From assembly GCF_026240635.1 (NCBI RefSeq), contig NZ_CP110848.1, positions 436,501-500,500 of the forward strand: 64,000 nucleotides of DNA, in the 5' to 3' direction. Position 1 is the stretch's first letter; each line of letters begins with the position of its first letter. Source of the DNA: Trichothermofontia sichuanensis B231 (GTDB taxonomy: Bacteria > Cyanobacteriota > Cyanobacteriia > B231). The position numbers and the translations under genes were made by a program. Of this stretch, positions 10,418 through 62,840 are shown piece after piece. Below the pieces are notes generated by a model. It saw only the letters and a list, made by a program, of their open reading frames with translations, was not told the DNA's origin and did not search any database.

Positions 10418-10641
10418 TACAGCCTTTACCTCAATCATAAAGTACAGTTTTATAGGGGTAAGATGGGGACAGCCCGCGGGTGCGGCCCTCACTCTAAATT
10501 CTTCTCCCGCTCTGGGAGAGGGGCTTGAAAATCCCGCTCCCCTGCTCCCAAGTGGGGAGAAGGGGTTGGGAGATGAGGGCTGCCGGTCGGATCCAGATCT
10601 AAACCTTAACGGTGTACTGAGTTAATTAGGTAAAGGCTGTA
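10418..10641. mobile_element. MITE-like element, family 2, intact copy
   Basis: The 224-bp element begins TACAGCCTTTACCT and ends with its exact complement AGGTAAAGGCTGTA, a perfect 14-bp terminal inverted repeat. The interior has the palindromic CTCCCGCTCTGGGAG type sequence and no coding frame. A close second copy lies at 61218-61440, a third at 48600-48807 and a broken fourth at 36590-36839. It fills most of the gap between cpcG and the asparaginase gene. The mobilising transposase is not in the window. Confidence 0.8.
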
Positions 10642-15567: not shown

Positions 15568-15674
15568 TATAGTCATTGCCATTTAGGCTGAAACAGCCCC
15601 CTCACCCCCCACCCTTCTCCCAGAGCAGCAGAGGGGAGTCAAAAATTGTATCGTTCTTATTTGGATTGACCATA
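15568..15674. mobile_element. MITE-like element, family 1, copy A
   Basis: The 107-bp element starts TATAGTCATTGCCATTTAGG and ends TTATTTGGATTGACCATA. The ends form an imperfect inverted repeat beginning TATRGTCA, and the core holds the GC-rich CTCCCAGAGC palindrome type. It has no coding capacity. It lies between gshB and yraN, ending 14 bp before the yraN GTG start. Confidence 0.8.
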
Positions 15675-16315: not shown

Positions 16316-16421
16316 TATAGTCATTGCCATTTAGGCTGAAACAGCCCCCTCACCCCCAACCCCTCTCCCAGAGCAGGAGAGGGGAGTCAAAAACTGTCTC
16401 GTTCGTATTTGGATTACCATA
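16316..16421. mobile_element. MITE-like element, family 1, copy B
   Basis: The 106-bp copy begins TATAGTCATTGCCATTTAGG and ends TTTGGATTACCATA, with one base missing from the terminal motif. It sits between the convergent yraN and hisC genes, 24 bp from the hisC stop. Confidence 0.8.
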
Positions 16422-31737: not shown

Positions 31738-31840
31738 TATAGTCATTTCAAGTGAGGCTGAAACAGCCCCCTCACCTCCAACCCCTCTCCCACAGGGGGA
31801 GAGGGGCTTAGACATCTCTTGCTAATCTGAAATAACTATA
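31738..31840. mobile_element. MITE-like element, family 1, copy C (variant right end)
   Basis: The 103-bp copy begins TATAGTCATTTCAAGTGAGG and ends CTAATCTGAAATAACTATA. Its ends are a better inverted repeat (TATAGTCATTTCA versus TATAGTTATTTCA) than those of most copies. The right third differs from the common form and is shared only with the copy at 39279-39381. Confidence 0.8.
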
Positions 31841-35556: not shown

Positions 35557-35663
35557 TATGGTCATTGTAATTTAGGCTGAAACAGCCCCCTCACCCCCCA
35601 CCCCTCTCCCAGAGCGGGAGAGGGGAGCCAAAAATTGTATCGTTCTTATTTGGATTGACCATA
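35557..35663. mobile_element. MITE-like element, family 1, copy D
   Basis: The 107-bp copy starts TATGGTCATTGTAATTTAGG and ends TTATTTGGATTGACCATA. It lies 26 bp after the SPOR gene stop and 220 bp before pspA. Confidence 0.8.
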
Positions 35664-36575: not shown

Positions 36576-36589
36576 GGCGAGGAAAACGA

Positions 36590-36839
36590 GGCGAAGGGGA
36601 TCTCGATTGTTCAGTCCCTCTCTTGCTCTGGGAGCAGGATTTATAGTTATTGCAATTTAAGCTGAAACACCACCCTCACCCCCCGCCCCTCTCCCAGCGC
36701 GGGAGAAGGGAGTGAAAAACTGTATCGTTCTTATTTGGATTGACTATAGGGTGAGGGGTGCACGAGGGGGATACCCCCAGCCTACCCACGTAAAGTTGTA
36801 CTTTATGATTGCGGTAAAATGATTGAAGTAAAGGCTGTA
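36590..36839. mobile_element. MITE-like element, family 2, degraded copy split by a family 1 element
   Basis: The right end reads TACTTTATGATTGCGGTAAA and ends AAGTAAAGGCTGTA, a variant of the family 2 terminus. Left of the split, AAGGGGATCTCGATTGTTCA aligns with the copy at 48600-48807. Joining GGATT at 36641 with TAGGGTGAG at 36747 rebuilds the uninterrupted sequence. The outer left terminus is not preserved. Confidence 0.65.
36642..36748. mobile_element. MITE-like element, family 1, copy E, nested in a family 2 element
   Basis: The 107-bp copy starts TATAGTTATTGCAATTTAAG and ends TATTTGGATTGACTATA. Flanking bases show insertion at TA with duplication of TA: GGATT-TA on the left and TA-GGGTGAG on the right, where the related uninterrupted sequence at 48730 has CATTTAGGGTG. 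This gives direct evidence for a TA target, as in IS630/Tc1-type transposition. The gap to vipp1 holds no gene. Confidence 0.8.
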
Positions 36840-39067: not shown

Positions 39068-39174
39068 TATAGTCATTGCCATTTAGGTTGAAACACCCCC
39101 CTCACCCCCAGCTCTTTTCCCACAGAGGGAGAGGGGAGTTAAAAACTGTATCGTTCTTATTTGGATTGACTATA
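39068..39174. mobile_element. MITE-like element, family 1, copy F
   Basis: The 107-bp copy begins TATAGTCATTGCCATTTAGG and ends TTATTTGGATTGACTATA, the cleanest termini of the common subtype. Confidence 0.82.
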
Positions 39175-39278: not shown

Positions 39279-39381
39279 TATAGTCATTGCCATTTAGGCT
39301 GAAACAGTCCCCTCACCCCCAACCCCTCTCCCAGAGCGGGAGAGGGGCTTAGACATCTCTTTCTAATCTGAAATAACTATA
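39279..39381. mobile_element. MITE-like element, family 1, copy G (variant right end)
   Basis: The 103-bp copy begins TATAGTCATTGCCATTTAGG but ends CTAATCTGAAATAACTATA, like the copy at 31738-31840. It is 104 bp from copy F in the same orientation. Confidence 0.8.
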
Positions 39382-48599: not shown

Positions 48600-48807
48600 G
48601 GTTAGTCAAATGACGCCACCGTTTTGGACTCGATCCGACCGGCAGCCCTCATCCCCCAACCCCTTCTCCCCACTTGGGAGAAGGGGAGCCTGATTTTCAA
48701 GTCCCCCGCCCGTTCTAGGAGAGGCATTTAGGGTGAAAGTCGCACCAAGGGAATGTAACCATCCTACCCCTGTAAAACTGTACTTTATGATTGAGGTAAA
48801 GGCTGTA
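48600..48807. mobile_element. MITE-like element, family 2, third copy
   Basis: The right end reads GTACTTTATGATTGAGGTAAA and closes with GGTAAAGGCTGTA, the family terminus. The interior has GACCGGCAGCCCTCATCCCC, matching intact copies in reverse. The left terminus is degenerate. It fills the whole gap between the metallophosphoesterase stop (48599) and the GGDEF-EAL stop (48812). Confidence 0.7.
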
Positions 48808-53933: not shown

Positions 53934-54150
53934 AGTCAGCAGCTTCGTAAAGCGGGTAATGGATAGCATCCGGACCGAAGGTTTGGCCAAGGGAGCAGCG
54001 CCCAGGGTTAACCTCGGCGGCTAGGACTTAGGGGTTTAGAGAGTTTGCTTCCAGGTTAACTGAAGGGTTTAGCTTTGACGAGATGGGACCGGACGGGATG
54101 ACTCTTGGGTAACCAGCAGCCCTCATCCCCCACCCCCTTCTCCCATTACT

Positions 54151-54257
54151 TATAGTCATTACAATTGAGGCTGCAACAGCACCCTCACCCTCAGCCCCTC
54201 TTCCAGAGCGGGAGAGGGGAGTGAAAAACTGTATCGTTCTTATTTGGATTGACTATA
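54151..54257. mobile_element. MITE-like element, family 1, copy H
   Basis: The 107-bp copy begins TATAGTCATTACAATTGAGG and ends TTATTTGGATTGACTATA. It lies 24 bp beyond the stop of the J-TPR-WD40 gene. The preceding 54130 region has more GC-rich repeat fragments. Confidence 0.8.
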
Positions 54258-60176: not shown

Positions 60177-60280
60177 TCTAGTCATGGCAATTTAGACTGA
60201 GACAGCACCCTCACCTTTAGCCCCTCTCCCAGAGCGGGGGGGAGTGAAAAACTGTATCGTTCTTATTTGGATTGACCATA
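60177..60280. mobile_element. MITE-like element, family 1, copy I
   Basis: The ~104-bp copy begins TCTAGTCATGGCAATTTAGA and ends TTATTTGGATTGACCATA. It directly follows the nadE stop codon (60174-60176). The first base pair has drifted from the TATA consensus. Confidence 0.75.
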
Positions 60281-61217: not shown

Positions 61218-61440
61218 TACAGCCTTTACCTCAATCATAAGGTACAGTTTTACCGGGGTAGGCTGGGGGCAACCCGCGGGTGTGGCCCTCACCCTCAATC
61301 CCTATCCCAGAGCCGGAGAGGAATTGAGGGTGAGGGTTTGCTTCTCCCAAGTGGGGAGAAGGAACTGGGGGATGAGGGCTGCCGGTCGGATCCAGAGCCA
61401 AACCTTAACGGTGTACTGAGTAAATTAGGTAAAAGCTGTA
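61218..61440. mobile_element. MITE-like element, family 2, intact copy
   Basis: The 223-bp element begins TACAGCCTTTACCT and ends AGGTAAAAGCTGTA. It is close to the copy at 10418-10641 along its whole length, including CCCGCGGGTG and GATGAGGGCTGCCGGTCGG. It has no coding frame. Confidence 0.8.
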
Positions 61441-62734: not shown

Positions 62735-62840
62735 GTAGTCAATCCAAATAAGAACGATACAGTTTTTCACTCCCCTCTCCCGCTCTGGGAGAGGGGCTGG
62801 GGGTGAGGGGGCCGTTTCAGCCTAAATTGCAATGACTATA
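62735..62840. mobile_element. MITE-like element, family 1, copy J (reverse orientation)
   Basis: It starts GTAGTCAATCCAAATAAG and ends TAAATTGCAATGACTATA, the reverse complement of the other copies. It lies 12 bp after the PLD-motif gene stop. Confidence 0.78.

What the first reader, a model, noticed from the sequence alone, without database searches (positions are those of the whole stretch)
36590..36839. Nested insertion proves TA target duplication for the 105-bp element
A family 1 element interrupts a family 2 element. The related uninterrupted copy at 48600-48807 shows that only one TA was present, while here TA stands on both sides. This fixes the element ends and links it to IS630/Tc1-type transposition. 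It also shows that family 2 arrived before this family 1 copy.
Basis: seen in the sequence. Interest (0 to 1): 0.6.

Follow-up and report, generated by a model that had tools for sequence, protein, structure and literature searches.

The report
Nested mobile repeats with TA duplication
A 103-base non-coding mobile element has jumped into an older repeat in a cyanobacterial chromosome and copied a two-base TA target, which marks it as a small relative of a well-studied bacterial transposon of the IS630/Tc1-mariner kind; it is well supported but of a known sort.

Summary
Family 1 (36642-36748: TA + 103 bp + TA) interrupts a left-truncated family 2 copy (about 36584-36839). With one TA kept, the joined flanks align gapless in 62 of 64 spanning matches (52 with TA at the site); with no TA or both TAs kept, 0 of 59 and 0 of 60 do. 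Eight further family 1 copies fit one TA as clearly.

Family 1 is an IS630/Tc1-mariner MITE with ISY100-type ends, about 370 full copies by extrapolation. Its left end matches the end of the Synechocystis element taken to be ISY100 at 21/27, and a broken ISY100-type IS630 in the same chromosome (G000:C1:1822910-1823817) matches the family 1b right end at 23/27. Family 2 is a second TA-flanked MITE with ends like the other resident IS630 type.

Corrections: the element is 103 bp (105 includes one TA). 'Family 2 first' holds only here, since one family 2 copy lies inside a family 1b copy. Both families share a palindromic core found without these ends elsewhere. Kind: new member of a known kind.

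The parts
36644..36746 (+). family 1a MITE, 103 bp, in the finding
36642..36643 (.). left TA of the target duplication
36747..36748 (.). right TA of the target duplication
36644..36668 (+). left terminal inverted repeat (read with the TA: TATAGTTATTGCAATTTAAGCTGAAAC), ISY100-type
36722..36746 (-). right terminal inverted repeat (reverse complement with the TA: TATAGTCAATCCAAATAAGAACGATAC)
36584..36641 (+). left part of the interrupted family 2 copy (its own left end is missing; start approximate)
36749..36839 (+). right part of the interrupted family 2 copy, ending GGCTGTA, with 14 extra bp
48622..48807 (+). uninterrupted family 2 copy (left end degraded, start approximate), one TA at the site
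10418..10641 (-). family 2 copy with both ends
61218..61440 (-). family 2 copy with both ends
39279..39381 (+). family 1b copy nested in a family 2 remnant: a second nested TA insertion in the window
   Evidence: one TA kept: 5 of 5 gapless, 4 with TA
15568..15674 (+). family 1a copy
16316..16420 (+). family 1a copy
31738..31840 (+). family 1b copy
35557..35663 (+). family 1a copy
39068..39174 (+). family 1a copy
54151..54257 (+). family 1a copy beside a family 2 fragment (54116-54144)
60179..60280 (+). family 1a copy, left end damaged
62736..62840 (-). family 1a copy, right TA not seen

Best explanation
Family 1 is a non-autonomous IS630/Tc1-mariner MITE (103 bp, no gene) whose ends are of the ISY100 type. 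An ISY100-like transposase, supplied in trans, cut it out at its ends and joined its 3' ends to a TA, and repair duplicated the TA. Here the TA lay inside an older family 2 copy. Shown: the ends, the TA duplication in several nested copies, a symmetric A-N-T-[TA]-A-N-T target lean, end similarity to ISY100-type IS630s, and a broken ISY100-type IS630 in the same chromosome. Inferred: that this IS or a lost sister supplied the transposase, and the cut-and-paste steps, taken from ISY100 biochemistry (PMC2170065). Family 2 (224 bp with both TAs) is a second MITE, probably moved by the other resident IS630 type, whose ends share the TACAGCCTTT...GTACA register.
For: Empty-site test: of 107 full copies, 21 had spanning repeat matches; nine fit one TA clearly (gapless/spanning 62/64, 55/59, 5/5, 54/54, 55/55, 53/56, 60/64, 50/52, 35/36); for these nine the no-TA reading gave 0 gapless except 8 of 56 and 1 of 33, and the two-TA reading 0 throughout. 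Flanks are TA/TA in 91 of 108 full copies; target bases T-1 50%, A+1 48%, A-3 41%, T+3 44%. Both ends of the Synechocystis 6803 element taken to be ISY100 and of three relatives are 20-23/27 identical to the best F1 end; of 82,755 TA-starting host 27-mers 7 reach 19/27 or more. Relic IS630 at G000:C1:1822910-1823817: transposase pieces 61, 62 and 70% identical to the Microcystis FD4 transposase, right end 23/27 with F1b. That transposase passes NF033545 IS630, PF01710 and PF13358. Mini-ISY100 with 30 bp of each end moves as well as full ISY100 (PMC2170065, passages); slight A/T preference in the 3 bases either side of the TA (PMC6400869, passages).
Against: No intact ISY100-type transposase was found in the chromosome, so present mobility is not shown. 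The relic's left end is only 17-18/27 identical to F1 ends, and F1 left and right ends are just 18/27 alike. Of the 21 copies with spanning matches, five give weak or mixed support (j5 6 of 27, j63 1 of 1 with CA, j75 1 of 2, j76 4 of 9, j80 19 of 22 but with TT or TG, not TA, in the uninterrupted copies) and seven are uninformative, one of which (j48) has a single gapless match with no TA kept. One of the nine clear copies (j67) itself reads TC instead of TA on its right. 17 of 108 copies are not TA/TA. That the 6803 element is ISY100 rests on organism, length (946 against 947 bp) and ends; the published end sequences are in a figure not held. Plasmids of this organism, if any, are not in the one-contig assembly.
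Confidence: 0.93

Rival explanations
1. Family 1 is a MITE of another TA-duplicating family, for example an IS5-type (IS427-like) element, and the TATAG tip is coincidental.
For: TA duplication alone is not unique to IS630 (recalled, not tested). IS4/IS5-type transposases do occur here: 5 PF01609 and 3 PF13586 matches.
Against: None of these loci has F1 ends on both sides of the transposase; L217, L220 and L221 show a single F1 left end each (L217 and L221 overlap, their end lies near the border of the held stretch). Similarity to ISY100-type ends runs through 27 bp at IS borders, and a same-genome IS630 relic has such ends.
Confidence: 0.03
2. The junction at 36642-36748 arose by recombination between repeats or by slippage, not transposition.
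For: Family 1 and family 2 share the palindromic core, which could align and recombine.
Against: The ends of F1 recur in hundreds of places, and the empty sites close with one TA at several different positions in family 2 and in another repeat.
Confidence: 0.02
3. Family 1 was moved by the other resident IS630 type (ends TACAGCCTTTCCC...), not by an ISY100-type enzyme.
For: Those IS630s are more numerous in this chromosome and also lie between TAs.
Against: No F1 end was found within their ~3.3-kb loci at <=8 mismatches; their left ends resemble the family 2 right end instead (7 mismatches of 29, with GTACA in register).
Confidence: 0.05

Closest known systems
ISY100 (ISTcSa), IS630/Tc1-mariner family, Synechocystis PCC 6803
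   Same: TATAGTCATTTCAATT-type ends (element in L246, L252 taken to be ISY100), TA target duplicated, A/T-rich surroundings of the TA
   Different: 947 bp with a 282-aa transposase (PMC2170065, passages); family 1 is 103 bp without a gene, 21/27 in the left end
ISY100-type IS630 of Microcystis aeruginosa FD4 plasmid p1FD4 (WP_158199409.1)
   Same: right end 23/27 with F1b and 22/27 with F1a; transposase 61-70% identical to the relic pieces
   Different: autonomous element with an annotated transposase gene
Type II MITEs of cyanobacteria, e.g. Anabaena sp. 90 (147 complete or partial, 77-541 bp; PMC3542288, passages)
   Same: small, mostly intergenic, terminal inverted repeats
   Different: there no evident similarity to the ends of resident ISs was found; here both families resemble ends of resident IS630 types
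   Same: both ends and core, 76% over query positions 1-103

Membership tests
MITE of the IS630/Tc1-mariner superfamily (family 1) | short, non-coding, multi-copy, fixed ends | tested here: met
   103 bp (F1a) or 99 bp (F1b) between the TAs; 72 full copies in 864 kb; 311 and 394 end matches genome-wide
MITE of the IS630/Tc1-mariner superfamily (family 1) | terminal inverted repeats | tested here: met
   imperfect, left against right 18/27 for both F1a and F1b
MITE of the IS630/Tc1-mariner superfamily (family 1) | TA target, duplicated | tested here: met
   (nine clear copies of 21 with spanning matches); flanks 91 of 108 TA/TA
MITE of the IS630/Tc1-mariner superfamily (family 1) | ends shared with an element that encodes an IS630 transposase | tested here: met
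MITE of the IS630/Tc1-mariner superfamily (family 1) | mobilised in trans by that transposase | not testable with these tools
   needs a bench assay; no intact partner found in the chromosome
MITE of the IS630/Tc1-mariner superfamily (family 2) | ends like an IS630 and duplicated TA target | tested here: met
   TA/TA in 31 of 37 full copies; one TA kept: 16 of 19 gapless for one copy (no TA 2 of 19, two TAs 1 of 18) and 33 of 35 for another (0 of 35 and 0 of 35, but its uninterrupted copies mostly read GA); F2 right end 7 mismatches of 29 from resident IS630 left ends
ISY100 proper | 947 bp with an intact transposase gene | tested here: not met
   family 1 has no gene; only broken relatives are resident

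The most novel reading that the evidence does not exclude
Two MITE families of one genome, with ends of two different IS630 types, have each taken up the same palindromic repeat, as a single hairpin (family 1) and as a twin hairpin (family 2), that is otherwise spread without those ends through cyanobacteria and some other bacteria, sometimes in frame inside a gene. IS630 MITEs would then act as vehicles that multiply a widespread palindromic repeat.
Probability: 0.45. Interest if true: 0.45.

Novelty: new member of a known kind. Interest (0 to 1): 0.3.

Why it matters
It fixes the borders and target rule of an abundant repeat (about 370 full copies by extrapolation) and ties it to a biochemically tractable transposase family. 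Nested copies serve as internal empty sites where no close relative was found among the genomes searched. The shared palindromic core suggests a way for a widespread repeat to be carried by unrelated transposon ends.

Tried and rejected
Autonomous partner through PF13358 in the own genome: 12 matches in 7 places, none with F1 ends at <=8 mismatches; this search missed the relic, which tblastn with an ISY100-type transposase found. Larger elements bounded by F1 ends in the 1.04 Mb held (<=7 mismatches): one pair only, 103 bp apart, at the F1b copy that a family 2 copy interrupts. IS4/IS5-type partners: none with paired F1 ends. PF13358 in six genomes including G263 and G008: of the 30 loci held (not all matches), only L118 had an F1-type end. 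Plasmid search with the Phormidium MITE: only weak Ligilactobacillus matches. Folding of the whole element as single-stranded DNA is not better than shuffles (z -0.84). No Rfam family reached its gathering score in the window. Literature: the core letters occur in 43 papers, of which 10 were listed, none on bacterial repeats by title; a four-term search for in-frame palindromic repeats in cyanobacteria gave none. These cover open-licence PMC papers only, and I make no claim that the family is unpublished.

Full report
What is there. The window is bases 436501-500500 of a 4,436,989-base one-contig cyanobacterial chromosome; every other genome listed is only of the same class. At 36642-36748 stands TA, 103 bp beginning TAGT and ending ACTA, and TA. 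The surroundings align to family 2 from about 36584 to 36839. The uninterrupted family 2 copy at 48600 has one TA at the site, and so has the family 2 consensus (GGGATTTAGGGTGAGGG).

Empty-site test. Of 108 full family 1 copies, 107 had 120-bp flanks. I joined the flanks keeping no, one or both TAs and aligned them to the 1,041,173 bases held. 21 copies had matches spanning the junction. Nine fit one TA clearly. The copy of the finding gives 62 of 64 gapless (52 TA) against 0 of 59 and 0 of 60. The other eight give 55/59, 5/5, 54/54, 55/55, 53/56, 60/64, 50/52 and 35/36 gapless, with TA at the site in 49, 4, 49, 50, 46, 53, 46 and 34 of those; for them no TA kept gives 0 gapless except 8 of 56 and 1 of 33, and two TAs kept gives 0. 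One of the eight reads TC on its own right side. The nine fall at several TA positions of family 2 plus one in another repeat (windows printed), five are F1a and four F1b. Five further copies gave weak or mixed support: 6 of 27, 1 of 1 (CA), 1 of 2, 4 of 9, and 19 of 22 gapless but with TT or TG in the uninterrupted copies; among these five the other readings gave at most 1 gapless each. Seven were uninformative, one with a single gapless match when no TA was kept. The repeat copies are related by descent, so the counts are not independent trials; the independent units are the F1 insertions.

Flanks and target. 91 of 108 full copies have TA on both sides. The bases outside lean to A at -3, T at -1, A at +1 and T at +3 (41%, 50%, 48%, 44%; host A and T about 23% each). 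For ISY100 a slight A/T preference in the three bases either side of TA is reported (PMC6400869, passages).

Copy number and place. The sample of the window plus 40 spaced 20-kb stretches (864 kb) holds 72 full copies, 60 F1a and 12 F1b, which extrapolates to about 370. Whole-genome pattern counts are 311 right ends of F1a at <=2 mismatches and 394 left ends at <=3, with 0 for the reversed patterns. 0 of the 72 have their midpoint in a mechanical six-frame ORF of 200 aa or more, against 70.5% of random positions; selection after insertion would give the same. Mean identity to consensus is 93.3% for F1a (92 copies), 93.7% for F1b (16) and 90.3% for F2 (37), so F2 may be older on average.

Who moved it. 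Seven IS630 regions on plasmids were fetched and scanned for TA-bounded end pairs of 24 bp. Synechocystis PCC 6803 (pSYSA and pSYSG), Microcystis aeruginosa FD4, Oscillatoria nigro-viridis PCC 7112 and Stanieria cyanosphaera PCC 7437 have TATAGT-type pairs about 0.95 kb apart, 19-22 of 24 alike; Synechocystis PCC 6714 has a diverged pair (17 of 24) and Candidatus Magnetococcus only 16 of 24, which other chance pairs in the same scan also reach. The 6803 element is taken to be ISY100 from organism, length and ends. The two ends of each of these four kinds are 20-23/27 identical to the best F1 end. In held host DNA with F1 and the relic masked, 7 of 82,755 TA-starting 27-mers reach 19/27 or more. 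tblastn with the Microcystis transposase found a broken ISY100-type IS630 in this chromosome at 1822983-1823786 (pieces 61, 62 and 70% identical, stops inside) with ends at 1822910 and 1823817, and a smaller remnant at 880006-880267 beside an F1 copy. The relic's right end is 23/27 with the F1b right end; its left end is 17-18/27 with F1 ends. In an alphaproteobacterial MAG all 22 PF13358 loci carry a TATAGTTATTSCAATTAA end near the transposase fragment (three read in full), so this end type goes with IS630-like transposases outside cyanobacteria too; those fragments are under the Pfam cut-off. [quoted passage not shown] For family 1 these steps are inferred.

Family 2. It is a 224-bp element counting both TAs, TA/TA in 31 of 37 full copies, with an A-N-W-[TA]-W-N-T lean. 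Its right end (TACAGCCTTTACC...GTACA read inwards) differs by 7 of 29 from the left ends of the resident IS630s L031, L033, L034 and L035, with GTACA in the same register. Its own empty-site test is thinner: 16 of 19 gapless with one TA for one copy (2 of 19 and 1 of 18 for the others), 33 of 35 for another whose uninterrupted copies mostly read GA. One family 2 copy (4109799-4110022) lies in an F1b copy: left flank ...TAATCTGAAA, right flank after the TA ACTATA, as in the F1b consensus; the automatic count did not score it as gapless because its one match has a gap a few bases to the right of the junction.

Shared core. The middle of F1 occurs without F1 ends in other cyanobacteria: 67 of 145 genomes searched, the own one among them, match at E <= 1e-6, nearly all listed matches lying within query positions 20-94. 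In 29 loci taken from that search there are 47 core sites in 28 loci, 0 with an F1-like end nearby, 16 of them in twin units; the 29th, L084, is the F1b-like element, its core beyond the 2 mismatches allowed. Fifteen twin units are 68.5-84.4% identical to the interior of family 2 (the search pattern itself selects for likeness). In L101 the core lies in frame in a copper-ATPase-like gene; on plasmids, including some of Cupriavidus, Sulfitobacter, Vitreoscilla and Prevotella, it matches too, in five of 18 records under genes annotated as DNA methyltransferase, DUF559 or DUF1156, where the frame was not tested. MITEs of Phormidium sp. FACHB-1136 have ISY100-type ends and a different middle. This is the part with most room for novelty.

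Noticed in passing
G000:C1:4109799-4110022 (L051 1456-1679): A family 2 copy sits inside a family 1b copy, the reverse of the nesting in the finding.
   Followed up: partly
L101 around 1501; plasmid hits H13, H14, H16, H17, H20: The palindromic core of F1 occurs without F1 ends inside genes, in L101 in frame in a copper-ATPase-like gene of another cyanobacterium; for the plasmid hits the frame was not tested.
   Followed up: partly
G000:C1:1822910-1823817 (L191 7910-8817): Broken ISY100-type IS630, the likely former partner of family 1 or a sister of it; missed by the Pfam DDE_3 search.
   Followed up: yes
39279-39381: Second nested insertion in the window: F1b in a family 2 remnant, one TA kept 5 of 5 gapless.
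   Followed up: yes
L175 3374-3523: Alphaproteobacterial MAG (Dive96_bin3.293) has a MITE with ISY100-like ends and 22 IS630-like fragments with the same end type.
   Followed up: partly
L173 6818-6911, L174 2235-2328: Phormidium sp. FACHB-1136 has a 94-bp MITE with ISY100-type ends and another middle.
   Followed up: no
G000:C1:3931713-3931816: A family 1 copy lies in a further multi-copy repeat (TTTATTTGTAGTTGCTGA around the site), not studied.
   Followed up: no
36820-36833: 14 extra bp, a near repeat of the stretch before it, near the right end of the interrupted family 2 copy; absent from the three other window copies aligned.
   Followed up: no
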